Below are positions 15,494 through 35,723 of a DNA stretch of 64,000 bases, piece after piece. The first letter of the stretch is position 1; each line of letters opens with the position of its first letter. The notes beneath the pieces were generated by a model. The model ran no database searches and was not told the origin of the DNA. It saw only the letters and a list, made by a program, of their open reading frames with translations. The position numbers were made by a program, and so were the translations under genes. Location: assembly GCF_023276375.1 (NCBI RefSeq), contig NZ_JALLPK010000001.1, positions 1,612,001-1,676,000 of the forward strand, read 5' to 3'. The stretch is from Halocatena marina. Its GTDB lineage: Archaea; Halobacteriota; Halobacteria; Halobacteriales; Haloarculaceae.

Positions 15494-18400
15494 TCAGATG
15501 AGTCGGGCCCGCTCACTCGGTGATAGTGGGAGTCGGTGATTGCTGCCATCACTTGAGTCACTACGTTCGCCCGCGAAGACAGGCGCCGGGGGCGCTCCGT
15601 TGTGGAACGCAGGTGGCGATATGGTGTTCTCAAACACCGGTGCCGGTGGAATAGACGCCTGTTGACTGCTGTTTGCGATGGTAACTGTCACTGGCTGGGT
15701 TACGACTTCTTGCAGAGTAGAGACGGCGGATTCGTAATCCCCCGGCGCTGCATCCGCTGCGATCTGATACGTGAACTCGACTGTCGTGCTCTCGCCGCCA
15801 GCGAGTGTGACCTGCTGTGGTACGGCACTCGGTTGGAAGTTACCCAGCATCTCCTGTGTGCCGAACGTTTCGAGATCGTACTCACTGACCGTCGACGCTT
15901 CCATGAAGAAGTAGTAGATGGACTGGGTCCCCTGTTCATCACCGGTGTTGGTAATGGTTGCCTCAACAGTGATCTCCTCGCCAGGACTGGCCACAGAAGG
16001 ACTAGTCAAGTTCGACACGGCAAAGTACGCCGGTTCTGGTTCGCCGCTCTGGACGGTGGTGTTCGTCAGTTGCTGGTCATCGTCGCTTACGATGCCGTGC
16101 TCGTAGGTGCGCTCGTCGTCCGGCACTATGTACGTGAACTCGACCGTTGCGTTCTCGTCAGGACCGAGGGTCATCTCGGTCGTGTTCTCAGTCGTATTGT
16201 TGAACACATACGCGATATCTTGCGTACCGGTTGCGTTTCCAGTGTTCGCAATCGTCGCGTTGACCGCTATCTCCTCTCCGGGAGCGGCTTCAGTCGGTGC
16301 AGAGAGGTTAGACACCGAGTAGTTTGCCTCATCAGGATCTTCCGCAGCCGCAATCGTGATGAACGTCGATTTGATCTCGTCGGCAGAGATACCGTGTTCG
16401 TACGCTCCTGGTTCTCTCTCTTCCGAAATTTGATAGGAGAACGTTACGGTCGTGCTCTCTCCGCCGTCGAGTGTTACCTCTTTGAACAGATCAGATGTGG
16501 CATCGATCATATTCCCACCGAAATCAGTGCCCGGTGGGAAGTAGAAGACTGTACGAGTGTCTTGCTGTTCGCCGATGTTCGTGATCGTCGCGCTCACGTT
16601 GACCGTATCGCCCTGTACTGCGGTGTCGGGCGCACTCAGGTTCGATACTTCGAAGAACGTTCCAAGAGTGAGGTTCTGCGTGCTCGTCTCGTTCGCATCG
16701 ACTTCCACGAAGGTGATATCCGATGCGTCGTAGCCGTCCGCTTTCGCTCGAAGCGCGTACGTACCACGGTCGAGACCCTCTATCTCGTAGTGTCCGCTCT
16801 CGTTGGTTGTCACATTGAACGCGCCCTGATCGGCGTCGACAACGTTCGCACCCGCGAGAGGGACGCCCGCAGCGTTTGTCACAGTGCCCGTGATGGTACC
16901 GTCGCGCGGAGTGATTTCGAAGTCAACGCCCGTGATTTCCTCACCGGGGGCGACCGTGACAACCTGCTCGGGTTGGTAGTCCGATGGCGTGTCGAGGACG
17001 TTCACGACGTAATTACCGCTTGGCACCGAAAGCGTATACGTACCGTTCTCGTCGGTTTTCGTCTCGTAGACGGTTCCGTCGTTGTCCTCAGCGGCAACAG
17101 TAACGTTCGCAACCGGATCGCCGGTGTCGCTAGCAGTGACCGTACCGCTCATCGATCCGTTCATCGGCGTGAGTTCGAAGCCGACAGTTGCGGTGTCGTT
17201 CGTCGGTACGTCGACTGAGTCGGTTACAGTACTGTACCCATCGGCTGACACCGTGACGTTGTGTGTGACGGCAGGTACGTCCACGATTCGGTACGTTCCG
17301 TTTGCGCCAGTCACAGCGGTGAAGTTGCCGTCACCTTCGATATCAATCGTCGCGCCTTCGATGGGGGTGTCTGTGACTGCGTCGGTGACAGTGCCGTTGA
17401 CGGTGCCACGGTCGACATCGATGGTCACCGGTGTAGTGGCAGTGTCGTCCTCGGAACTGACGGTATGGAGCCAGTCAGCCGAAATATCCAGATCATCACC
17501 GACTGTGTGCGTGAACTCGACGGATTCAGTGTCTCCCGGAGCAAGCGTGACGTTCTCCGAAGTGTTCTGCTGAGTCACATCGGTCGTACCAGCCGAGCCA
17601 CTGACGTGCGTTACGCTGTTTGCAAGAATTTTGTTCGCCGCATCGGTCATATCTGGGTTTTCGACAAAGGGCTCTCGACCGAGCGAGGATGCAAGGACCG
17701 TCGAATTAGCAGCATCGACGCCGAGGGCCGGACCGCCTTGGCCCGTATTCTGAGCACCGACGGTGGCGATGGCCTGACCACCGTAGCTGCTGAACCAACT
17801 GCGATCGGCGTAGCTCGCGGTGTGAATGTCTACCGTCTCGCCCGATTCAGCAACTCCGTCGAAGATCGGGTGGTCCTGCGTGACGGTGTAGTAGACGGGG
17901 GAAGCACCGTCATCAGCGTCATTAGTGCTGGCCGGATTGCCGGTCGCATCAGCCAATTCAGGAATGGCGTCACTCCCAGATCCCCAGCCATCGAGCCAGA
18001 CGACACCGGTCTGTTGACCGTTGGTCGCCTCGACGAACGCCTGAACGTCAAGTTCAGACGGATTGAGGTCCTGTATCACGAACGTGTCGTATTCGTTGAC
18101 CGCCTCCATCGCGTTTTGGTCTTCGACCAGCGTGACGTTGTATCGGTCAGAGAGTTCCTCACGGAGTGTTGAAACGACTTGGTCACCAAATCCTTCCTCA
18201 GAGTCGACGACAGCAACCTCGGTATTGTCTTGCATCAGATCGTACGTCACTGTCTGTTCGCCGGTCGCATTACCAGTGTTCTCGACTGAAGCAGAGACGT
18301 TGATCGTCTCACCGACCGAAGCCTCAGAGGGAGCATCGGTGATCTCGACATCAAAGAACGCTTCGAGCACCGTGATGGTGGCCGACATCGAATCATCGTC

Positions 18401-20743
18401 GGTACCGACGCTGTGTTCGTAGGTGCCTGCGCTTACTCCGTCCGTCTCGATATCCTCAAACACGACAGTGGTGCTCTCACCGGGAGCAAGCGTTACGTTC
18501 GTTGTTTGCTCAACTCCTCCATCGAAGCGGTACTCGACGGTTTGGGTACCCACGCTGTTACCCGTGTTTGTAATTGTCGCGTTTGCGTCGAACGCCTCGC
18601 CCTGCTCGATCTCGGTGGCTGCATGCAGGTTAGAGACTTCGAAGTTCGCACCGAGAACGGTGAGTTCGTCAGTTGCAGAATCGTCTTCGCTGAACACCCC
18701 GAGATGGTACTCGCCTGCGCCGATCTCCGAGGTGTCGATTTCGAACGTGACTGTGGTTTCGTGTGGTCGGTCAACTGGATTGTCGATCCCTGCGGGTGCC
18801 ATGTCAACCGTTTCGTTCGCGACCGGTACGCTGTCTCCGAGATCACTTTCGTTTTCGGCAGCGTGGAGCGATATCTCTTGGATCGCACCCGCATCGCCGG
18901 GATTTTCGAGATCGACAGTGACGTTGATCATCTCATCATTACTGACCTCGTCGGGCACAGAGAGGTTCGACACCACGATTTTGCCCTCAGAAAGCGTGTC
19001 CTGAACCTTCCGCTGGAGCAGGTTCAGATCCTCGGTGGTGACTGCACCGTCCCGGTTCATGTCCGCGAGATTCTCGTTGAACGACTCGGGGACTTCGCCG
19101 TAGAGGTACTGCTGCATCAGTTGGACATCTTCGACGTTGACCGCATCGTTCTCGTTGACGTCGCCGAGTTCGAACTGCGGTGCAACAGTAGCGACCTGCT
19201 CTGTCGCGTTGTACACGTCGATGATACCCATTCCGTAGCGGGTATCCTTTTGCTCTGTAGGTTCCTCCCAATCATCGGGCTTCCACGCTGTCTTGTTGAG
19301 TGCCTGCTGGATCTCAGAGACGGTGAGATCCGGGTTCGCCGAATGAACCAACGCGACTGCGCCTGCGACGTGTGGGGTGGCCATGGAGGTGCCCGAAAGT
19401 GTCTGATAGCTCCCACCAGGTTCAGCACTCAGGACGTCGACGCCAGGCGCAGAGACGTTCGGTTTAACGAACGTATCGGGCCACGCTGCTGGAGGATTAT
19501 CCCAGTTGCTCGTATCGATGACTCCACCGCTGGAGAATTCTGCAATCTCACCGTTCGCATTCGAAGCCCCGATGCTGAAGGTTCTAAAGTCGTTACCGGG
19601 TGATCCCACACAGCCCTCGCCTGAGTTCCCGGCCGCAGCGACAAAGCTCGTCCCGGATGCCTTGGTGTTCTCGACCACAGGAATCCACGCCTGCGAGTAG
19701 ACGGGTCCAAAGAGACCACAGCCCGCACCGAGGCTGAGACTCGCCACATCGGCCCCCTCGCCAACTGCCCACTGGACACCACCGATGACTTGTTCAGAGG
19801 TCCCGCTCCCCCCGGGGATAACCATTCCGTGCATCAACTGAACGTCAGGTGCGACGCCGATTGCGGTACCACTTGCATCGCCGCCAGCGATAGTGCCGCT
19901 GACGTGCGTGCCGTGATAGGCGCTATCGCGTGGCTCGGAGTCAGGGATTGGTTCCCCATTCTCATCAATTTCGGCCCACCCACCGGGATAGGTCGGATCA
20001 GACGCGTTTTCGGTGTAGAGATCGAGATCTGGATGATCGATGTCGACGCCGGTGTCGAGCACTGCGACTTTGGTGTCTTCGCCGCGCGTGTCGAACTCGC
20101 TCCAAACCTCGGTCGCGTTGATCTGGTCCAGACCGTAGGTAGTGTTAGTTTCGGCGGATTGTGCGTCCATCGACTGCACGCTGTCGTTTGTCTTGCTTGA
20201 TGTTGGGGTCGACAGGGTGCGACTCTTGACGACTGCCTTGACACCGTCAATCGCAGCGAGCGACCGAACGTCGGTCTGATCGGTATCGATAACAACTGAG
20301 ACGATGTTTGCGATCCAGAACCTGTTCGTGACCGTGACGCTCTGTAAATCGTCCGCAGCCGTCGTTACAGACGGCTGTGTTGACGAAGCGTGCGATTTGA
20401 GCGTTTTAATTATTTCGTCACGGCCTGCTTTCTGATCAATAGATGCCTGATCGAGAACGAGGAGTGCACGCGTTTTCCCTTTCGTTTCTTTCAGGGCTGG
20501 ATCGATCGTTGCCTCCGATTGAACCTGAGTTGGGGACTGGCCGAGGCTGTCGCTTCGCTCGGACTGTAACTCATCTAATCCGAAATCGGAGTGCTGTTGT
20601 GCAACACCGATGCTCGTGTCGATACTACTGTCTCCCACCTGCTGTTGCGCTACCACTGACCCAGTGAAGGGCACAACTATGGAAAGCGTAACAACAAACG
20701 CGAAAACAACCGCCAGAAGTCGTCTTCTTTGTTTGTGTGTCAT
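15494..20743 (-). CDS. Giant secreted subtilisin-like protease with dockerin-like segment, CARDB-like and carboxypeptidase-regulatory-like repeats
   Basis: 1749 residues. A Sec-type signal peptide (residues ~6-32) is followed by a propeptide-like region (~85-175). The S8 peptidase domain (~200-520) has Asp230 (VAVLDTGVDI), His277 (HGTHVSG), oxyanion Asn373 and Ser453 (GTSMATPH). Residues 525-585 are a dockerin-like pair of Ca2+-binding loops (DVNENDAVNVEDV and DMNRDGAVTTEDL). CARDB-like beta domains follow. An amidotransferase-like fold at ~841-1049 interrupts the third. Next are three carboxypeptidase-regulatory-like repeats (~1115-1358) and more CARDB-like domains to ~1690. No C-terminal membrane anchor or PGF-CTERM motif is visible. 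It probably acts outside the cell, attached through its repeats. Confidence 0.93.
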   Translation of the reverse strand: MTHKQRRRLLAVVFAFVVTLSIVVPFTGSVVAQQQVGDSSIDTSIGVAQQHSDFGLDELQSERSDSLGQSPTQVQSEATIDPALKETKGKTRALLVLDQASIDQKAGRDEIIKTLKSHASSTQPSVTTAADDLQSVTVTNRFWIANIVSVVIDTDQTDVRSLAAIDGVKAVVKSRTLSTPTSSKTNDSVQSMDAQSAETNTTYGLDQINATEVWSEFDTRGEDTKVAVLDTGVDIDHPDLDLYTENASDPTYPGGWAEIDENGEPIPDSEPRDSAYHGTHVSGTIAGGDASGTAIGVAPDVQLMHGMVIPGGSGTSEQVIGGVQWAVGEGADVASLSLGAGCGLFGPVYSQAWIPVVENTKASGTSFVAAAGNSGEGCVGSPGNDFRTFSIGASNANGEIAEFSSGGVIDTSNWDNPPAAWPDTFVKPNVSAPGVDVLSAEPGGSYQTLSGTSMATPHVAGAVALVHSANPDLTVSEIQQALNKTAWKPDDWEEPTEQKDTRYGMGIIDVYNATEQVATVAPQFELGDVNENDAVNVEDVQLMQQYLYGEVPESFNENLADMNRDGAVTTEDLNLLQRKVQDTLSEGKIVVSNLSVPDEVSNDEMINVTVDLENPGDAGAIQEISLHAAENESDLGDSVPVANETVDMAPAGIDNPVDRPHETTVTFEIDTSEIGAGEYHLGVFSEDDSATDELTVLGANFEVSNLHAATEIEQGEAFDANATITNTGNSVGTQTVEYRFDGGVEQTTNVTLAPGESTTVVFEDIETDGVSAGTYEHSVGTDDDSMSATITVLEAFFDVEITDAPSEASVGETINVSASVENTGNATGEQTVTYDLMQDNTEVAVVDSEEGFGDQVVSTLREELSDRYNVTLVEDQNAMEAVNEYDTFVIQDLNPSELDVQAFVEATNGQQTGVVWLDGWGSGSDAIPELADATGNPASTNDADDGASPVYYTVTQDHPIFDGVAESGETVDIHTASYADRSWFSSYGGQAIATVGAQNTGQGGPALGVDAANSTVLASSLGREPFVENPDMTDAANKILANSVTHVSGSAGTTDVTQQNTSENVTLAPGDTESVEFTHTVGDDLDISADWLHTVSSEDDTATTPVTIDVDRGTVNGTVTDAVTDTPIEGATIDIEGDGNFTAVTGANGTYRIVDVPAVTHNVTVSADGYSTVTDSVDVPTNDTATVGFELTPMNGSMSGTVTASDTGDPVANVTVAAEDNDGTVYETKTDENGTYTLSVPSGNYVVNVLDTPSDYQPEQVVTVAPGEEITGVDFEITPRDGTITGTVTNAAGVPLAGANVVDADQGAFNVTTNESGHYEIEGLDRGTYALRAKADGYDASDITFVEVDANETSTQNLTLGTFFEVSNLSAPDTAVQGDTVNVSATITNIGEQQDTRTVFYFPPGTDFGGNMIDATSDLFKEVTLDGGESTTVTFSYQISEEREPGAYEHGISADEIKSTFITIAAAEDPDEANYSVSNLSAPTEAAPGEEIAVNATIANTGNATGTQDIAYVFNNTTENTTEMTLGPDENATVEFTYIVPDDERTYEHGIVSDDDQQLTNTTVQSGEPEPAYFAVSNLTSPSVASPGEEITVEATITNTGDEQGTQSIYYFFMEASTVSEYDLETFGTQEMLGNFQPSAVPQQVTLAGGESTTVEFTYQIAADAAPGDYESAVSTLQEVVTQPVTVTIANSSQQASIPPAPVFENTISPPAFHNGAPPAPVFAGERSDSSDGSNHRLPLSPSERARLI

Positions 20744-27935: not shown

Positions 27936-28067
27936 ATGGAAGAAAGCACAACGCTAACACAGTACCTAGCAGAGCACCCACGCATGATCGGCGTCGCAGC
28001 CGTTATGTGCTTCCTACTGACGCAAGTCGGTAACGCTGCAGCCGCTGGCGGTGGAACGATCGGGTAA
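27936..28067 (+). CDS. DUF7503-like hydrophobic micro-protein
   Basis: 43 residues. A polar start MEESTTLTQYLAEHPRMIGV is followed by one hydrophobic segment (AAVMCFLLTQVGNAAAAGG). The pattern 'EHPRM(I/M)G + hydrophobic + Q-x-G-x-A-AA' matches my recollection of the tiny haloarchaeal family DUF7503, whose members often sit near DUF7504 and HTH (DUF7344) genes. It is convergent with the CHAT gene cluster 345 nt to its right. A small membrane-associated partner or sensor is one possibility. The family assignment is from memory. Confidence 0.7.
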   Translation: MEESTTLTQYLAEHPRMIGVAAVMCFLLTQVGNAAAAGGGTIG

Positions 28068-28411
28068 TCTGTTGTTACCCGGACATTCTCTCGCGCAATA
28101 ACGAAGAGAATCCAGAACTACCAGCAACTGTAGATCTACTGGTCGTTGGCCAGTCGTCGGCTGTGGGGAGAATGGATATCGCTCGATTCCGTTGGGAGGA
28201 GTCGTGACGCACTCAATGAGCATAGTCACTGGGACGATTGTGGAGAGTCCGATGGAGTGAGCAAGGTACCGTTGCGTTCTCAGTTCCAATGTGATTTTTC
28301 GGAGCATCCCTATCCACAGAATCAGCTCTGAAACACCGTATGGTGTGTGAATCAGCTCTCGGCAGCCTGCACTACTGAGCTAGAGAGGAGTACGAACACG
28401 GATCTTAGCCG
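28068..28411. other. Intergenic gap between the micro-protein and the CHAT cluster
   Basis: About 345 nt between two convergent genes. No gene is supported; open frames on both strands are short and low-complexity. Confidence 0.4.
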
Positions 28412-28893
28412 TCAGTTTAGCGCGAGAGAGCTTGTTGGCGACTCAGAGCATTTTACCGGAGTGGACGTAGGCGGCCGTCTGAGAGACAAACAGGACGCTG
28501 TCTCAGTGAACTCCGTTAGCTTGAGTTCAACGCGCTCACAAACGAACACACCGGCGATTACAGCAGCCTGTCGGATTACCTCAGACAACGAATCGATAGC
28601 CGAGAGCTCGCTCTTGCCATCGTAAAACGGCCCAGCTCCATTCGCTCAAGTGAAAGGGCAACGACCAGCAGCGATTGATCACCACGCGTAGAATTGATGA
28701 GAACGGACGCAACATCAGTTGTAGAGATACACAGATGGACTGGAGGAGCAAATCTCACGACGCCCTGCGCTGTCTCAGTGAAACGACAGTCAAAGCACAC
28801 CGAGTCGACGCGAGGTATCAGATCGCGGTAATAGCTCGCTGAAAATCGTTGTTCAGCAATTGGCCGTTCGGGATTATTGAAATGAGCCGTCAC
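28412..28893 (-). pseudogene. Third gene of the CHAT cluster, interrupted by a -1 frame change
   Basis: The gene starts at GTG 28893, overlapping the CHAT stop by 4 nt (GTGA). Its first frame runs 105 codons and stops at 28576. From about 28632 the -1 frame continues with good protein character (FYDGKSELSAIDSLSEVIRQ, then AAVIAGVFVCERVEL) to a TGA at 28412-28414. An in-frame TGA at 28646-28648 limits the change of frame to 28619-28645, a region with a TTTT run on the coding strand. The product would be ~160 residues of alpha/beta type, rich in strands (VVRFAPPVHLCISTTDVASV), with no known family. The sequence shows either a single-base deletion or a programmed -1 shift. Confidence 0.6.
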
Positions 28894-30998
28894 CGATCAT
28901 CGTCAGAGTTTGAATGAGAGAGCGGCGGAACAGAGACATCTGTCGACCACACCAGTTCGCTTCCGAGCACGACTGGCACCCGCTCCAACCGGAGAAATCG
29001 ATCCAACATATCCGCCGAGACTGTAAACGACGGGAGTTCCCCACCCGTTAGGAAATACTGATCGATGCCGTCGATAAACGGAGTGAACACCGAACCGATT
29101 CCCGGTTCTGTCGTTGGATACGTCGTGAGCTGGACAGAATACGTCTGGGCATCCGCCGACGGAGTGATTGAGCAGACGTACGGGGTGCCGCTTTCGCTCT
29201 GCGTGATTTGGATACTCCCATCACCGACGACAATGTACTGGCGGCCGGTTCGCCGGTGGGATTGCGTGATTGCAAGCGCAGATCGGAGAGAAAACCCGCA
29301 GTTCAGCAGCCGTGCCACCACCTGACCAATTCCGGTTGCGTCGTCATTTCCAATATCACTGTGGGTGACGATCCCGCCGACACTGCCTGCTTCGATCAGT
29401 TTCGTCCCAACCTCGTATGAGCGACAGCTGTTCAACAGAAACGTATCGATCCCGACCGTTGTCAACGAAGCCGTCTCAAGCGTACCATCGCGGCAGATAA
29501 ATCCATCAGGTATCGTATGACCGATGTAGTGAAAGAAATCAGTCTCGGTTCGTAGCAAATCGTGAAGGTCAGCGACAGAGCAGTCTTGGTGAACTGTGAT
29601 ATCGAACGGAAGCTCGTCTCGATCGCCGTACAGGGCCGTCCCTGCTGTGTACTCATCTAGCATCGCCGAATCATTACAGACGACAGTAATATCGATCTCG
29701 TCGGTTGACTGGCGCCGGTGAAGCTTGTTCTGGAATGCAACGGGGATGAGTTTGTTCGCTTGGAGTGGTATCCGGGGTCCGAGCCAAGCGTGTTCCAAGG
29801 TGGGGGTCGAGGGAAGAGTGATATAGCGATCAGTAAGTGCAAAGCTCTCTGCCGACCGGAGCTGTGTCTCACCACGCATGAACGCATCCATCTCCTGCTG
29901 GAGTCCGACCTGATCGTTCGTGCTGGACGCTGGTACGGTCGGCCGAACGAACGACAGGTAGTTCACGAGATACGGAAGCTGTTCGAGAATCGAAGCATCG
30001 GGCGTGACGTGTGTCGTGAGGGGCCACTGGGGAACCACATCCACGATATCTTCGAACGGAACGGCGAGATACTGCTCGATCTGCTCTGATAACGGTGCAT
30101 CATACAGGTCAGTAATCTCGAATGGGAGACGTGATTCGACAACGGTCCGTTCGTGGAGATCGATCTTGTAGCGTCCCTCCGTCCGTATGATACAGTCGAA
30201 GAACAGAACCTGCTTGAGGAGACGTTCGACATCGTTCTGGAACCCCCGAAGCGAATGATCGAACCGGTAAATAACCCCATTCTCAGTTACGATACGAGGC
30301 AACTCTCCAATGACGACCTCGGCTCCGAGATAGTAGGCAAGCGGGCTCACTGCGTAGATCAGTGCTTCGCGGTCCGGGATTTCGATTCGAACGCCTGTTT
30401 CCGGACGTGTGATATTGTCCGGCACGTAGAATCGATCCCCGAGTTCGATTGCGGGCGGATGACCTCGTAGGGAAGGGAGTGATCGTTCACAGCTCGTCGT
30501 TTTCAATGCCGAGCCGAATGTCGAAATCGCCGCCGCCATATCTTCGGGTGTTTCCGTCGTGGTGATCGTCCCTGCTGGAGCTTCGTGATACGATCGAGCA
30601 CCGATACAGACTCGAGTCGCATCGGTGAACTCCAGTTTCATGTGCGCTTCCCACGAAGCGATTGTGATTGTGCTGTGTACCCGGAGGAAGATCTTGATGG
30701 GGGCTAACAGTTCAATGATGTATGTTTGCTCCGGGAGTTGCTCGTACGCGTGTTCTTCTGCATGGAGCAGACGGTTCCCATCCGTATCACGAACGTACAC
30801 CGGAACCACGTAGGGAAGCGTGAGATATTCTGTAGTGATCTCAACTGCTCTGTCAGTTGGGGCGGAGAACTGGTCTGTTTCGGTTGGGATTGGATCGATA
30901 GGCTCGGCTGTCGTGAGTGGAAACTGCCGCCGCTGAATGGGATCAACGATGGTGAGTTCAGGTGAGGTAGAAGTCGCACTAAACCGCATGTGTGGCAT
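28890..30998 (-). CDS. CHAT-type (caspase-like) cysteine peptidase with large unknown N-terminal region
   Basis: 702 residues from ATG 30998, preceded by GGTGAG; a TTG at 31022 is an alternative. The C-terminal third is CHAT-like: a strand ending in FFHYIGH (His494), then LETASLTTVGIDTFLLNSC (Cys525) and GIVTHSDIGN, with the spacing of the caspase His/Cys dyad. CHAT peptidases belong to clan CD with caspases and separase. No TPRs are present; residues 1-400 are a beta-rich region with no family I know. It overlaps the next gene by 4 nt and follows the HalOD1 gene by 80 nt, so the three form one operon. Its target is unknown. Activation by the HalOD1 partner is inferred. Confidence 0.78.
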   Translation of the reverse strand: MPHMRFSATSTSPELTIVDPIQRRQFPLTTAEPIDPIPTETDQFSAPTDRAVEITTEYLTLPYVVPVYVRDTDGNRLLHAEEHAYEQLPEQTYIIELLAPIKIFLRVHSTITIASWEAHMKLEFTDATRVCIGARSYHEAPAGTITTTETPEDMAAAISTFGSALKTTSCERSLPSLRGHPPAIELGDRFYVPDNITRPETGVRIEIPDREALIYAVSPLAYYLGAEVVIGELPRIVTENGVIYRFDHSLRGFQNDVERLLKQVLFFDCIIRTEGRYKIDLHERTVVESRLPFEITDLYDAPLSEQIEQYLAVPFEDIVDVVPQWPLTTHVTPDASILEQLPYLVNYLSFVRPTVPASSTNDQVGLQQEMDAFMRGETQLRSAESFALTDRYITLPSTPTLEHAWLGPRIPLQANKLIPVAFQNKLHRRQSTDEIDITVVCNDSAMLDEYTAGTALYGDRDELPFDITVHQDCSVADLHDLLRTETDFFHYIGHTIPDGFICRDGTLETASLTTVGIDTFLLNSCRSYEVGTKLIEAGSVGGIVTHSDIGNDDATGIGQVVARLLNCGFSLRSALAITQSHRRTGRQYIVVGDGSIQITQSESGTPYVCSITPSADAQTYSVQLTTYPTTEPGIGSVFTPFIDGIDQYFLTGGELPSFTVSADMLDRFLRLERVPVVLGSELVWSTDVSVPPLSHSNSDDDR

Positions 30999-31078
30999 GC
31001 TCACCGCCGAATAGCTCTCCAAACGATACGTGTGGTGAGTGGATCATGGTACCGAAGAAGATCCTCGTCGAAACGCTC

Positions 31079-32023
31079 TCAGAGCGGCATCCACCGTGTC
31101 GTAAAGTTACTCGTTTGGAGATGCCAGCGGTATTCTGGCCCGTGTTCACTGACGCGCATCTCAACGACGATCTCGAAGCTCTGGCGCACATTCTGTACTT
31201 GTGAGGAGTCAAATGCGTACGGAAGTTGGAACTGTCCCATTCCGTCTCGCTGTTTGATGGCATTGCAGATCTGAGTCAGCGAAGTCGTGATCTGGTCGGG
31301 ATCGGCTCTGTCGACGAATGGCCGCAGTGAATCGAAACAGAATCGGAGATCTGCTGGCTCAAACGTCTCATTGTGGTGTTCGAGATCAGAAAGTGTCTGG
31401 AGAATTGCCGCTTGAACGTCTTCAAGCGAGCCAGACACTCTCGACAGTTCCAGATCGGTCTGCGTCGTATTAGTCTGTGCTGCAGCAGAGCGAGCTGAAT
31501 CACCAGTCGAAATTACGTGTGCTCGCTGCTGTGGAATTTGTGCATCCGAGAGGCGGTGAACGGCTGTTTGCGTCGGACGATCCGAGAGTGCAAAGAGAGC
31601 TGTCCGATCACGGCCGGCATCGCCGAGCAGGCGTGTGCTCAACTCATCACGAATAGCGTCTGGGACTGTACCGCACACGAGAAGATTCACTCCCTGTTGT
31701 TTGAGGCGATCGAATTCAGAGAGTAGCGTGATCGTCCCATCCGCCTTGGCAGAGACATGATACCCATGGAAGGAAAAACAGACCGTGCCGTGTGGTCGTT
31801 TGGTGCCGTCTGCTTTCGGCTGAAACAGGGCATCTAATGCACTCGGGTTGATGACTTCGTGCAGTGCCTGATGGAGTTGCGTCGGATCGACCTCGCTAGC
31901 GCGCGCAACGCCCATGACGATCTCAGTACTCAGCGACTGATCGGACCCCAGTGTGAGCTGTAGTGTCCGCGAGATTGGATCTGGATCCACGTGTGGTTCC
32001 GTGTCGGTACTGTTCGGAGACAT
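31079..32023 (-). CDS. HalOD1 output domain plus RecA-like-fold (DUF7504-type) protein
   Basis: 314 residues. Residues ~18-90 match HalOD1, a haloarchaeal signal-output domain: SLSTEIVMGVARASEVDPTQ, then LHEVINPSALDALF, then GTVCFSFHGYHVSAKADGTI. Residues ~105-190 resemble the DUF7504 RecA-like fold (VNLLVCGTVPDAIRDELSTRL, then RDRTALFALSDRPTQTAVHRL) but no Walker A motif (GxxxxGK[ST]) is present, so nucleotide hydrolysis is doubtful. The C-terminal ~100 residues are helical and acidic. It begins the operon that continues with the CHAT peptidase, with its TATA box at 32071-32080. It is the likely regulatory or sensing component. Confidence 0.75.
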   Translation of the reverse strand: MSPNSTDTEPHVDPDPISRTLQLTLGSDQSLSTEIVMGVARASEVDPTQLHQALHEVINPSALDALFQPKADGTKRPHGTVCFSFHGYHVSAKADGTITLLSEFDRLKQQGVNLLVCGTVPDAIRDELSTRLLGDAGRDRTALFALSDRPTQTAVHRLSDAQIPQQRAHVISTGDSARSAAAQTNTTQTDLELSRVSGSLEDVQAAILQTLSDLEHHNETFEPADLRFCFDSLRPFVDRADPDQITTSLTQICNAIKQRDGMGQFQLPYAFDSSQVQNVRQSFEIVVEMRVSEHGPEYRWHLQTSNFTTRWMPL

Positions 32024-32416
32024 CGTTCTTCGCTAGGGACCTCGACAGTTGTCCGTAAAAAATGCTCGTTATTTATATAATATCACTATTACGTAATTTG
32101 GTCCCTAACAGAAGAGATCTGGTAAACGACGAACGAAAACTAGGCTGGTATAATACGCTAGTTCTGTGCGTGCGAATCGATTGTCGTATGGCCTTTTACA
32201 AAGCTAAAATATGTAATTAACAGAGGATATAACAATATATTGTAAAAATAGACGAGTCGAACAATCGTGAACTTCATCGAATCGACGACAGTGTGCGTCC
32301 GACGCTCCGACCGATTGCACCGATACACTCTTTCCGAACGTGTCTCATCCAATCACTGCGGATCGTCCGTATCCACACTTCTTAAGAGAACAGTTGAATT
32401 ATCGAGACGGAGCGTA
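32024..32416. other. Regulatory gap between the HalOD1 and DUF7344-like genes
   Basis: About 390 nt. It holds the promoter of the HalOD1-CHAT operon and long A/T-rich tracts near 32205-32250. No gene is supported. Confidence 0.45.
32071..32080 (-). promoter_or_regulatory. TATA box of the HalOD1-CHAT operon
   Basis: On the minus strand the sequence TTATATAAAT lies about 50 nt before the ATG at 32023. This implies a short 5' leader of about 25 nt; the GAGGTC inside it may serve as a ribosome-binding site. Confidence 0.55.
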
Positions 32417-32848
32417 TTAGGTCGATTCAGCGTTCCGATCCACCCGTTGAACCTCCTCATGATGGTTAAGGTGGTTACTCACCACATCTAATACCTCGCA
32501 CATCGTGTCAGCGTGCGTTCCGGGAGAGAGCGTCTCACTCTCTTCATCGAAGTGGACCGCTCCTGTGTTCTCAAGTTTTGGGATGTGGGCGTGATAGAGC
32601 GAAACGTACATGCGCTCGTGCATGTGCTCATCGACAGCCTCTTCGTCGACAGCGTGTTCCCATGCAGCAAGCGTGGTTGCGAGTGCAGACAGTGTCCACT
32701 GATCATCCATCGTGAATGCATACAATACAGAGCGACGCCGGAAATGAGAAAGCACCTCGAATACGCCATCCAAATCAAAATCATCAGAATCAACAGTCGC
32801 GTGTGATTGTTGAAACAATGCGGCTTGTGTGTCGTCCCCATCGACCAT
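32417..32848 (-). CDS. DUF7344-like winged-helix protein
   Basis: 143 residues. A winged-helix region spans ~28-105: DLDGVFEVLSHFRRRSVLYA, a helix-turn with TLSALATTLAAWEHAVDEEA, then the recognition helix MYVSLYHAHIPKLENTGAVH and the wing FDEESETLSP. This resembles the DUF7344 domain, a haloarchaeal HTH that I recall near DUF7503/DUF7504 genes. The acidic linkers at both ends are haloarchaeal. It is on the same strand and immediately upstream of the HalOD1 operon, with its own TATA box, so it is the first candidate for that operon's regulator. Confidence 0.75.
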   Translation of the reverse strand: MVDGDDTQAALFQQSHATVDSDDFDLDGVFEVLSHFRRRSVLYAFTMDDQWTLSALATTLAAWEHAVDEEAVDEHMHERMYVSLYHAHIPKLENTGAVHFDEESETLSPGTHADTMCEVLDVVSNHLNHHEEVQRVDRNAEST

Positions 32849-33321
32849 TGTATAAATATCTAAGTGGTGCTAATAAATAATTCTAGTTCCCGATTATAAA
32901 CGGTATCCACACCACAGTACGTGGACAGCGTGACCAATAGCGTTCGTGTGCCGTCGTATGAACCGGATCACTCAGGAGAGGTGACTAGTCGTCTCGCACA
33001 AGCATCACTTGAGATGATGGTTCTTTAAGTGACTCTGGCGATAAGGTAGATATATAGACGGTGTTTCTCGCTGTTTCTCTCGACTCGCTGTCGCTGTTTA
33101 CGGTCACAGCATACTCACTGTACTCAGCTCTACCGGCGCCGTGACGGGAGTGTCCCGACTGTCTAACAAAACAGAGTGACACTCTGTAAGACACTGTTGT
33201 GAACAGTTCGGGCGGGTTTTATGCTGTTTCGGGCTGAAGTAAAGCGAGTGACTGTTCAATCGATCGGCGCTGCGGTCGGACGAGTAATACGTCATACGTA
33301 TTGGTGCAGCACTGCAGGCTC
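32849..33321. other. Intergenic gap between divergent genes, with an 8-bp-arm palindrome
   Basis: About 470 nt. It contains the perfect inverted repeat ACAGAGTG (33171-33178) and CACTCTGT (33180-33187) around one A, about 135 nt before the CAP-domain gene. No gene is supported. Confidence 0.45.
32871..32880 (-). promoter_or_regulatory. TATA box of the DUF7344-like gene
   Basis: Minus-strand TTATTTATTA is centred 27 nt before the ATG at 32848, the spacing of a leaderless archaeal transcript. Confidence 0.6.
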
Positions 33322-34044
33322 ATGGGTCGGATAATCAGTCGTTTCTTCGGTGTCGTTATCCGAATCGTGCTCTGTGTAGTAGTACTGTCGTTTCTGGTCT
33401 CAATCGGAGTGTCAATGGGAGTGATTGATGCCGGACCAGCAGCCGATAGCACGATTGAAACCCCGGAACCACTCCCAGATTGGTCGTTTGTATGGGAAAT
33501 ACCGATCGATGGAGATTCCGGAGCAGATCTGCAAGAGCAATCTGATTCCGCAGACAGAGCGTCTGTTGGTGATCCCGTTCAGGGGCCTCCAGGGACGACA
33601 CGCATCGAAAACGGACAGGCATCGATTAGTTCCAACGAGATCGAAGTACGTGTCCACAAGCGGGTCAACGTGATTCGGACGGAGAACAACTTATCAAAGT
33701 TAGAGCACAGCGGCGAGATAGCTACGATCTCGCGAACGTACAGCTATGACATGGGAGAACGAGAGTATTTCAGTCACGTTAGTCCCGAAGGGGAGAGACC
33801 CGACGACCGGTTCGGTGATCTGTATCCGAGCAAGTGCCACGCTATTGGCGAAAATCTCGCACGCTTGAGTGGTGTCATAGCCCTGGATGCTGACGACATC
33901 GCAGAACGAGTCGTCGATGGGTGGATGAACTCCAAAGGCCACCGTAAGAATATTCTCACCGATAAATGGGACAGTCAAGGAATTGGTGTCTATATCGACG
34001 GCAGGAGCGTGTACGTCACCCAGGAATTCTGTGACGAATGGTAA
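33322..34044 (+). CDS. CAP-domain (SCP/PR-1-like) secreted or membrane-anchored protein
   Basis: 240 residues from ATG 33322 (an in-frame TTG at 33301 would extend it). An N-terminal membrane segment or signal (residues ~4-33), a disordered acidic linker (~38-110) and a C-terminal CAP domain (~112-240) are visible. The CAP signatures are HKRVNVIRTENNL, YSYDMGEREYFSHVSPEG, GENLARL, and VDGWMNSKGHRKNIL, with the His residues that form the metal-binding cavity, ending in VYVTQEFCDEW. CAP proteins act outside the cell, in archaea with unknown targets. It is alone; the 8-bp palindrome ~135 nt upstream may control it. Confidence 0.88.
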   Translation: MGRIISRFFGVVIRIVLCVVVLSFLVSIGVSMGVIDAGPAADSTIETPEPLPDWSFVWEIPIDGDSGADLQEQSDSADRASVGDPVQGPPGTTRIENGQASISSNEIEVRVHKRVNVIRTENNLSKLEHSGEIATISRTYSYDMGEREYFSHVSPEGERPDDRFGDLYPSKCHAIGENLARLSGVIALDADDIAERVVDGWMNSKGHRKNILTDKWDSQGIGVYIDGRSVYVTQEFCDEW

Positions 34045-34730: not shown

Positions 34731-35723
34731 TTATTCAGGCAGATCCATCGCGTGAAAGAGGCGGTACGTGACGAGTTGGGCGGCAAGATCGACGACAGTA
34801 TCACGATCCCCAACATCGGAAAATAGTCCCAATGAAACTCGTCCGTCTGCTGCATCACGATGTCCGCTGACGTTTCCCAATCCCTCGAAGGTACCACGCA
34901 AGAGCTTGCCGACGTGAACGCTTGGACTGGTCGAACGAGCACTCAACTGTATTTCGTCTTCAATCACCCCAAAGATCACGGCAGTGTTGATGCCTTCGAG
35001 GTTGATGAGGAAATCAGCGGCTTGTGGAATGGCGTTGCGCTCGGTTGTTGTACCGACGTGTGAAACGAGTGATGAACTCCGCACTGTTCGATTATCGATC
35101 GCATCGCTCAGCGCGTCGATCGTCGCGGGTGTGTACGGTGGTGTCAGCAACTGTCCGAGAAGATCAAGGTCAACATACGGATGCAGATACTCAGCTGCGA
35201 CGTATTCGTGGATCGTCGCGCCGCGAATGAACTCAAGCGTTTCACGCCGTATCGCAAACAACAACGCCGTTGCTAAGTCTGCTTCTGGTTCGATTTCGAG
35301 ATCGTGAAGATACCCGACCAGAATTGTCGCTGTCGCTCCAGAATCCTCCCGATGAACGAAACGCGCGTCGATTTTGTCGGCTGGATGATGATCAATCACG
35401 ATGTCGATCTGTGTATCGGGTGGTATCTCGTTGTTGATGCCAGGGATCGAATGATCGACGAATGCCGTGAGATCGTGATCCAACGCCATTGTTAAATCGA
35501 ATAAATGTAAATTGATATCGAGAAGATTAACGAATGTACGAGTTTGACGGTGTGAGATCTGACCACTGTAGTAGATATCGATTGTTTTTACACTGTTTTC
35601 GTCAGCTATTCGCTCAAGCGCCAATGCACTAGCGAGACAATCCGGGTCGGGATTGTTGTGGCAGACGATACCAAGAGAGTCATTGTCAGCCAAGAGATTA
35701 GAGAGATCCTGTTCTTTACTCAT
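34731..35723 (-). CDS. DHH-family phosphoesterase (RecJ/NrnA-like)
   Basis: 330 residues. It has the DHH motifs: HNNPDPDCLASALALERIAD (residues ~21-40, with the Asp pair that binds metal), FVDHSIPG (~88) and VIDHHPADKI (~108, the Asp-His-His signature). A C-terminal DHHA1-like part carries VSGHRDAADGRVSLGLF. Enzymes of this type remove phosphate from 3'-phosphoadenosine phosphate, cyclic dinucleotides or short RNA (NrnA), or degrade DNA (RecJ). The length of 330 residues suits the smaller NrnA-like or archaeal members. It is separate from its neighbours. Confidence 0.88.
   Translation of the reverse strand: MSKEQDLSNLLADNDSLGIVCHNNPDPDCLASALALERIADENSVKTIDIYYSGQISHRQTRTFVNLLDINLHLFDLTMALDHDLTAFVDHSIPGINNEIPPDTQIDIVIDHHPADKIDARFVHREDSGATATILVGYLHDLEIEPEADLATALLFAIRRETLEFIRGATIHEYVAAEYLHPYVDLDLLGQLLTPPYTPATIDALSDAIDNRTVRSSSLVSHVGTTTERNAIPQAADFLINLEGINTAVIFGVIEDEIQLSARSTSPSVHVGKLLRGTFEGLGNVSGHRDAADGRVSLGLFSDVGDRDTVVDLAAQLVTYRLFHAMDLPE

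What the first reader, a model, noticed from the sequence alone, without database searches (positions are those of the whole stretch)
28412..32848. CHAT (caspase-like) peptidase module with HalOD1/RecA-like partner
Seen: four same-strand genes in order, DUF7344-like HTH, HalOD1 plus RecA-like protein, CHAT-type peptidase with His494/Cys525 motifs (HYIGH, LLNSC), and a third gene overlapping it by 4 nt. Known: CHAT peptidases are clan CD cysteine proteases often triggered by a sensor, and some act in prokaryotic immunity; HalOD1 is a haloarchaeal signal-output domain. Inferred: the HalOD1 protein senses a signal and switches on the peptidase, making a stress, development or defence circuit. The 400-residue N-terminal region without TPRs matches no CHAT partner type I know.
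Basis: partly seen in the sequence, partly recalled or inferred. Interest (0 to 1): 0.85.

Follow-up and report, generated by a model that had tools for sequence, protein, structure and literature searches.

The report
Archaeal caspase-like protease with micropeptide partner
Most salt-loving archaea examined carry an unrecognised caspase-like protein-cutting enzyme, and next to most copies of its main branch sits a gene for a tiny signal-peptide-like peptide that was not found away from it; this makes an old puzzle about caspase-like activity in these organisms testable.

Summary
The protease (28890-30998, minus) is a diverged CHAT-type peptidase: catalytic His and Cys are kept in 122 of 122 proteins of its two active clades, and 23 of 64 relatives match Pfam CHAT weakly. 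It is core to haloarchaea (365 of 391 genomes) and was not found in the phage or viral searches. The partner is HalOD1 fused to DUF7504, a KaiC-like fold; 0 of 50 CHAT-adjacent DUF7504 proteins show a Walker A motif. DUF7504 lies within 2 kb of 49 of 104 main-clade genes. It is encoded convergently within 300 nt of the protease stop in 92 of 104 main-clade loci; all 36 DUF7503 hits over cut-off in 47 genomes lie beside such a gene. It looks like a signal peptide plus a 6-10 residue tail. Best reading: a sensor-gated CHAT protease whose cognate substrate or effector is DUF7503; also a candidate for the orphan caspase-like activity of Haloferax volcanii.

The parts
28890..30998 (-). CHAT-type cysteine peptidase, 702 aa from ATG at 30998 (TTG at 31022 would add 8 aa); family unnamed in Pfam
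   Evidence: family in 365 of 391 class genomes
29517..29519 (-). codon of catalytic His494 (HYIGH)
   Evidence: sequence; His in 122 of 122 main-clade and clade-B proteins
29424..29426 (-). codon of catalytic Cys525 (LLNSC)
   Evidence: sequence; Cys in 122 of 122 main-clade and clade-B proteins
31079..32023 (-). HalOD1-DUF7504 protein, 314 aa: output domain fused to a KaiC-like domain without a Walker A motif; 56 nt upstream of the TTG start of the protease
   Evidence: a TATA-like TTATATAAAT lies at 32080-32071 (by eye)
27936..28067 (+). DUF7503 micropeptide, 43 aa, convergent with the protease gene; 822 nt between the two genes, unlike 92 of 104 loci where the gap is at most 300 nt
   Evidence: own HMM E 1.1e-17; Pfam PF24335 E 8.9e-14, 51 bits against a cut-off of 27
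28068..28889 (.).
32417..32848 (-). DUF7344 (HTH-like) protein, nearby but not a conserved partner

Best explanation
The protease is a soluble CHAT-type (clan CD, His-Cys) endopeptidase that works as a module with two partners. DUF7503, a membrane-bound or exported micropeptide encoded tail-to-tail with it, is its cognate substrate or effector. The DUF7504 protein, a KaiC-like domain without a P-loop that is fused here to the HalOD1 output domain, is the regulator that gates it. A signal reaches DUF7504/HalOD1, the protease is licensed, and it cuts (or is docked by) DUF7503 at the membrane; the invariant Pro followed by Arg/Lys just before the hydrophobic stretch is a candidate cut site on the cytoplasmic side. 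Shown: the genes, the invariant dyad, the family's spread, the obligate-looking gene pairing, the KaiC-like fold without a Walker A motif. Inferred: activity, physical contact, direction of control, cut site, physiological output.
For: His494 and Cys525 kept in 122 of 122 proteins of the two active clades. 23 of 64 members match Pfam CHAT at E up to 1, best 1.5e-4, and one matches Peptidase_C25 at 1.2e-3. 365 of 391 genomes of the class and 78 of 86 genera. DUF7503 convergent within 300 nt in 92 of 104 main-clade loci, 0 of 18 clade B, 0 of 7 degenerate clade, 0 of 4 methanogen relatives at E 1e-10. In 47 chosen genomes 36 of 36 DUF7503 hits over the Pfam cut-off lie beside a CHAT gene, all convergent, and 0 of 21 genomes without a main-clade gene have one over cut-off. 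Among named plasmids 13 of 13 records with a DUF7503-like place also have the CHAT gene beside it. DUF7503 genes vary most at third codon positions (0.24/0.20/0.49). DUF7504 beside 49 of 104 main-clade genes and 15 of 15 in genus g40. KaiC-like fold; Walker A in 0 of 50. Pro followed by Arg/Lys in 91 of 93 micropeptides, [DE]xP[RK] in 65 of 93; separase, a CHAT relative, cuts after ExxR (passage of PMC9729208).
Against: No structure: the model of the protease has mean pLDDT 55 and about 25-50 over the catalytic domain, and its Foldseek hits are meaningless. Profile searches of solved structures found nothing. CHAT matches whose bits were shown are under the Pfam cut-off, and the window protein itself matches no family. 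DUF7503 is missing within 300 nt at 12 of 104 main-clade genes (8 had none nearby), and 5 of 41 hand-picked main-type genes in whole genomes had none over cut-off. About half of main-clade genes have no DUF7504 nearby. Pairing proves association, not cleavage. In the window the pair is split by 822 nt. The acidic part of the ExxR-like motif is absent in 28 of 93 micropeptides.
Confidence: 0.55

Rival explanations
1. DUF7503 is a peptide pheromone precursor: a Sec signal peptide ending in an AxA-type site, releasing a 6-10 residue peptide that usually ends in Gly-Pro. The protease belongs to its maturation or response, and DUF7504/HalOD1 ties it to population or stress sensing.
For: A/V-x-A-like site at a fixed place in 88 of 93, tail after it 6-10 residues in 93 of 93, 76 of 93 end in GP, 90 of 93 tails distinct. 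Only 22 of 96 tails hold a charged residue. Recalled, from no call: the CHAT protein HetF of cyanobacteria acts in a pathway with short peptide signals (PatS/PatX).
Against: No export, cleavage or extracellular peptide shown; small residues at the end of a membrane helix give an AxA look; 64 of 93 have a 19-residue hydropathy peak of 1.6 or more, typical of a membrane helix. The protease has no obvious signal peptide, so it would act on the other side of the membrane.
Confidence: 0.2
2. DUF7503 is a membrane toxin or pore, or a holin-like effector, restrained or released by the protease: a regulated cell-death or stress module.
For: Single hydrophobic stretch, size of small membrane toxins (recalled comparison), obligate-looking link to a caspase-like protease.
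Against: Near-universal and mostly chromosomal, several copies per genome, no viral or PADLOC link: unlike patchy toxin systems.
Confidence: 0.12
3. The protease is mainly a housekeeping peptidase and the source of the strong caspase-like (LEVDase) activity of haloarchaeal extracts; DUF7503 is only a membrane anchor or inhibitor.
For: PMC3615174 (parts 1-3 of 5 read) reports dominant, zVAD-sensitive caspase-like activity in H. volcanii, also Halorubrum and Haloarcula, with no gene identified. Haloferax volcanii rings in the control searches for DUF7503 and DUF7504; 15 of 15 genomes of a Haloferax-like genus have exactly one family gene. Clade B sits in a conserved housekeeping locus beside serine hydroxymethyltransferase, TbsP and YcaO genes.
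Against: The same paper reports similar activity in Pyrococcus furiosus and Sulfolobus solfataricus; I saw no member there (DUF7503, DUF7504 and CHAT control searches ring in neither; the family itself was not searched there). zVAD and LEVD imply Asp at P1, whereas separase-like enzymes prefer basic residues. Proteasomes are an alternative the authors themselves raise. H. volcanii's own gene was inferred, not seen.
Confidence: 0.2
4. An anti-phage defence module, as CHAT peptidases are in Craspase and gasdermin systems.
For: CHAT peptidases serve in immunity elsewhere (passages of PMC9729208); family members also lie on 25 plasmid records.
Against: 365 of 391 genomes, clade B in a housekeeping locus, no PADLOC hit in the module or ten further window proteins, no phage or viral hit.
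Confidence: 0.05

Closest known systems
TPR-CHAT / Csx29 of Craspase (type III-E CRISPR)
   Same: CHAT-type His-Cys peptidase held in a partner-controlled module (passages of PMC9729208)
   Different: no TPR Pfam hit here, no CRISPR gene in the scans made, H-to-C spacing 31 residues against 42 (H585-C627), partner is KaiC-like plus a micropeptide
HalOD1-iKaiC proteins (Galperin et al. 2018, PMC5847659)
   Same: that paper already lists HalOD1-iKaiC as an architecture, iKaiC being an inactivated KaiC-like domain (passages): the window's partner fits it
   Different: the words caspase, CHAT and protease do not occur in that paper's main text, so no protease link is made there; its source paper (Makarova 2017, mBio) is not held and was not seen
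Prokaryotic orthocaspases and metacaspases (p20; PMC6426788)
   Same: clan CD His-Cys logic; both families include copies that lost the dyad
   Different: that survey counted only 93 archaeal p20 proteins and no archaeal pseudo-variant (passages); the haloarchaeal family is far more frequent and has a dyad-less clade, so it was apparently not captured there
DUF7503 (PF24335) and DUF7504 (PF24336) in Pfam
   Same: both families exist in Pfam, with neighbouring numbers
   Different: no function; their link to a CHAT protease is not stated in the Pfam descriptions shown
HetF (CHAT) of cyanobacteria (PMC8406250)
   Same: a CHAT protein with a developmental role; passages only
   Different: HetF has TPR and membrane segments; no sequence comparison was made

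Membership tests
CHAT peptidases (PF12770), clan CD | His in a G-H context and downstream Cys after a hydrophobic strand | tested here: met
   HYIGH and LLNSC; both residues in 122 of 122 active-clade proteins
CHAT peptidases (PF12770), clan CD | match to the Pfam model over its cut-off | tested here: not met
   window protein no match; 23 of 64 relatives match at E up to 1, best 1.5e-4; where bits are shown 19.6-22.4 against a cut-off of 24. CHAT-type is therefore a likeness, not curated membership
CHAT peptidases (PF12770), clan CD | caspase-like alpha/beta fold | tested here: inconclusive
   model pLDDT 55, catalytic region mostly under 50; Foldseek uninformative
CHAT peptidases (PF12770), clan CD | proteolytic activity dependent on Cys | not testable with these tools
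   bench assay needed
TPR-CHAT / Craspase | TPR repeats and a CRISPR effector | tested here: not met
   no TPR match in the window protein nor among the families listed for 64 members; no PADLOC hit
HalOD1-iKaiC | HalOD1 plus KaiC-like domain without P-loop | tested here: met
   HalOD1 and DUF7504 in Pfam, KaiC fold, no Walker A in 50 of 50 CHAT-adjacent DUF7504 proteins
DUF7503 | match to PF24335 over its cut-off | tested here: met
   51.2 bits against 27
Anti-phage defence system | known defence gene or defence-island context, patchy distribution | tested here: not met
Source of H. volcanii caspase-like activity | gene present in H. volcanii | tested here: inconclusive
   DUF7503 and DUF7504 ring in H. 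volcanii; the protease gene there is inferred from 36 of 36 pairings

The most novel reading that the evidence does not exclude
Haloarchaea have a peptide-based signalling system that has escaped notice: DUF7503 is a secreted 6-10 residue pheromone precursor with a hypervariable tail, and each copy is paired with its own caspase-like CHAT protease, gated by a P-loop-less KaiC/HalOD1 sensor. It would be an archaeal counterpart of peptide-and-protease signalling in bacteria, and the protease would be the missing haloarchaeal caspase-like activity.
Probability: 0.12. Interest if true: 0.95.

Novelty: new variant of a known kind. Interest (0 to 1): 0.8.

Why it matters
A protease family present in 365 of 391 sampled haloarchaeal genomes mostly carries no name: 22 of the 25 best plasmid matches are annotated hypothetical or not at all. 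It gives a concrete gene for an activity reported in 2012 without a gene (PMC3615174), in a genetically tractable organism that seems to hold a single copy. It ties two Pfam families of unknown function (DUF7503, DUF7504) to a function, and shows an obligate-looking protease and micropeptide pair, a rare lead for membrane or peptide signalling in archaea.

Tried and rejected
Defence module: PADLOC negative for the module and ten further window proteins, distribution near-universal. Fourth gene 28576-28893: rejected. DUF7344 as a partner: not conserved. Solved-structure sequence searches: nothing. The 822-nt spacer as a mobile element: single copy in the own genome and no convincing terminal repeats. 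The REC/HalX-like gene next to DUF7504 in one clade is a possible third partner, not followed further. Viral relatives: none. Library searches: 'CHAT domain' with 'haloarchaea' and with 'HVO_' gave no paper; 'CHAT domain, archaea, caspase, prokaryotic' gave 5, seen as a listing, one of them (PMC8406250) later in passages; 'metacaspase, Haloferax' and 'caspase-like activity, Haloferax volcanii' gave 5 and 4. So absence from print is claimed only for these searches.

It drops three weak long versions in one genome (L122, L123, L126) that one search had counted, and shows that the partner-less L057_6844 only has its tandem neighbour's peptide nearby.
Full report
The observation. On the minus strand the window encodes a DUF7344 protein (32848-32417), a HalOD1-DUF7504 protein (32023-31079) and a 702-710 aa protein with HYIGH and LLNSC motifs. 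The genus is probably Halocatena: a contig of same-genus genome G042 has the length of a Halocatena salina plasmid record (532,509 bases).

The protease family. The window protein matches no Pfam, NCBIfam or PADLOC family, but its family is huge. It was found in 130 of 146 genomes of the window's own family, 365 of 391 sampled genomes of the class and 78 of 86 genera, with five copies in the own genome and 25 plasmid records. No relative was found in phages or IMG/VR contigs (the scans of viral contigs use short patterns). Of 64 members, 23 match Pfam CHAT at E up to 1, best 1.5e-4; where bits were shown they were under the cut-off of 24. The catalytic His and Cys are present in 104 of 104 main-clade and 18 of 18 clade-B proteins. 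Of annotated plasmid copies, one is called CHAT domain-containing and one caspase family. The structure model is too poor to confirm the fold (mean pLDDT 55; Foldseek uninformative).

Four groups in the tree (FastTree, SH-like supports only, long-branch warnings printed; 133 rows left after removing identical C-termini from 154 hits). (i) The main clade, 104 rows, including the window. (ii) Clade B, 18 rows (support 95), nine of which sit in a conserved locus with serine hydroxymethyltransferase, TbsP and YcaO genes. (iii) A clade of seven proteins (support 100) that keep the N-terminal ~360 residues (E about 1e-90) but have lost the dyad: none of the seven has Cys at the catalytic column, and one has a chance His. 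(iv) Four proteins of one non-haloarchaeal family (G458, G467, G476, G485), three with the dyad and one without. The strong conservation of the N-terminal region in the dyad-less clade says that it has a role of its own.

The KaiC-like partner. DUF7504 genes lie within 2 kb of 49 of 104 main-clade genes: 36 upstream on the same strand, 11 downstream on the same strand, 2 otherwise (many loci were fetched with only about 1.5 kb of flank). In genus g40, 15 of 15 genomes have exactly one family gene and a DUF7504 gene just upstream of it. g40 is Haloferax-like: 20 kb of a non-chromosomal contig of one member matches six Haloferax plasmids at 80-82% over 52-71%, the next genus covering 15%; a second member's contig was much less telling. 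The model of the window partner (mean pLDDT 78) matches KaiC (best E 1.7e-7), and none of 50 CHAT-adjacent DUF7504 proteins shows GxxxxGK[ST]. HalOD1-iKaiC is a known architecture (passages of PMC5847659). In the window's own subclade the DUF7504 domain starts about 100 or more residues in, which leaves room for the HalOD1 fusion (HalOD1 annotated in Haladaptatus, Halostagnicola and Natronosalvus relatives). In one other clade DUF7504 is followed by a REC-like gene.

The micropeptide. NCBI annotation of Haladaptatus and Halomarina plasmids shows a 44-49 aa hypothetical gene tail-to-tail with the protease. An HMM from such ORFs, searched over all ORFs of 25 codons or more in the loci held, finds a copy convergent within 300 nt in 92 of 104 main-clade loci; three more (window, L044, L069) have one elsewhere within 1.5 kb, one has only its tandem neighbour's, and eight have none. 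Clade B, the dyad-less clade and the methanogen relatives have none at E 1e-10, though three clade-B-like genes of genome G245 have weak, longer look-alikes. The loci are those I fetched, not a random sample. Pfam knows the peptide as DUF7503 (NCBIfam nothing). In 47 chosen genomes the family hits 24 over the cut-off with 36 genes: 36 of 36 lie beside a family gene, downstream and convergent, 35 within 276 nt and the window's at 832 (match ends). The 23 genomes without a hit over the cut-off include G212, which has a main-clade gene, and G245, with many clade-B-like genes; the other 21 have no known main-clade gene (four of them judged by match strength only). Conversely 5 of 41 main-type genes in these genomes had no DUF7503 over cut-off. 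Thirteen of 13 named plasmid records with a DUF7503-like place have the protease gene beside it (one query, low sensitivity). Divergence by codon position is 0.24/0.20/0.49, as for a coding gene under purifying selection.

What the micropeptide looks like. The consensus is YLxEHP(R/K)MxGVLFTxLLLLSQAGxxAA followed by a tail. Of 93 clear members, 91 have Pro-Arg/Lys before the hydrophobic stretch and 65 have [DE]xP[RK]; 88 have an A/V-x-A-like site at a fixed place; the tail after it is 6-10 residues in 93 of 93 and distinct in 90 of 93; 76 end in GP. The window copy ends in GGGTIG, without GP. A 19-residue hydropathy peak of 1.6 or more occurs in 64 of 93. So it is either a signal peptide with a short mature tail or a one-helix membrane peptide; I cannot tell which.

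Mechanism. The most economical reading is a protease with a dedicated membrane peptide as substrate or effector and a KaiC-like regulator. Separase, the structural relative of CHAT, cuts after ExxR (passage of PMC9729208), and the EHPR/EHPK motif resembles that; this is a lead, not a test, and the acidic residue is missing in 28 of 93. Directions of control are inferred.

Link to an open question. PMC3615174 (parts 1-3 of 5 read) reports that H. volcanii extracts have very strong zVAD-sensitive caspase-like activity and that no gene is known. Haloferax volcanii rings for DUF7503 and for DUF7504 in the control searches. Since 36 of 36 DUF7503 genes lay beside the protease, H. volcanii very probably has the protease; I did not see it directly, and the Pfam CHAT control search does not ring there. 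Against the link: the activity is also reported for archaea in which I saw none of these families, and the authors raise the proteasome.

Novelty. The domains are known or listed; the family-wide protease, its pairing with DUF7503 and the dyad-less clade were not found in the library searches made. I rate it a new variant of a known kind (partner-controlled CHAT protease), with a bolder reading as peptide signalling.

Noticed in passing
L114-L120 (loci of G208, G152, G182, G174, G191, G396, G157): A clade of seven CHAT-family proteins that keep the N-terminal ~360 residues but have lost His and Cys: pseudo-proteases, all next to unrelated genes in the stretches seen.
   Followed up: partly
L038 (own genome C1:403000-411500), L072-L074, L076, L108, L130, L132, L133: Clade B of the family sits between a serine hydroxymethyltransferase gene and TbsP/YcaO genes in several haloarchaeal families: a conserved core locus without DUF7503 or DUF7504.
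   Followed up: partly
G458:C1, G467:C1, G476:C3, G485:C61 (L151-L154): Single relatives outside haloarchaea; two contig lengths (3,179,916 and 2,957,635) equal those I recall for Methanocella arvoryzae and M. paludicola. One of the four lacks the dyad.
   Followed up: partly
G166:C1:417052-423293; G245 (12 matches): Three tandem family genes in G166, and an expansion to about a dozen copies in G245, three of them with longer DUF7503-like neighbours (L122, L123, L126).
   Followed up: no
window 29493-29495 (Cys502 codon, minus): A second invariant Cys (GFxCxDG) between His and catalytic Cys: 122 of 122 active-clade proteins, 5 of 7 dyad-less ones and 4 of 4 methanogen relatives; role unknown.
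   Followed up: partly
L036, L037, L050, L053-L055, L058, L063, L064: CHAT followed by a 333-525 nt gap, then DUF7504 and mostly a REC-like ~190 aa gene on the same strand; in several of these loci the gap holds the convergent DUF7503 gene.
   Followed up: partly
window 15494-20743 minus: 1749-aa S8 subtilase with dockerin, carboxypeptidase-regulatory and CARDB domains.
   Followed up: no
window 33301-34044 plus: CAP/YkwD-like secreted-type protein next to the module.
   Followed up: no
window 34731-35723 minus: DHH/DHHA1 phosphoesterase-like protein.
   Followed up: no
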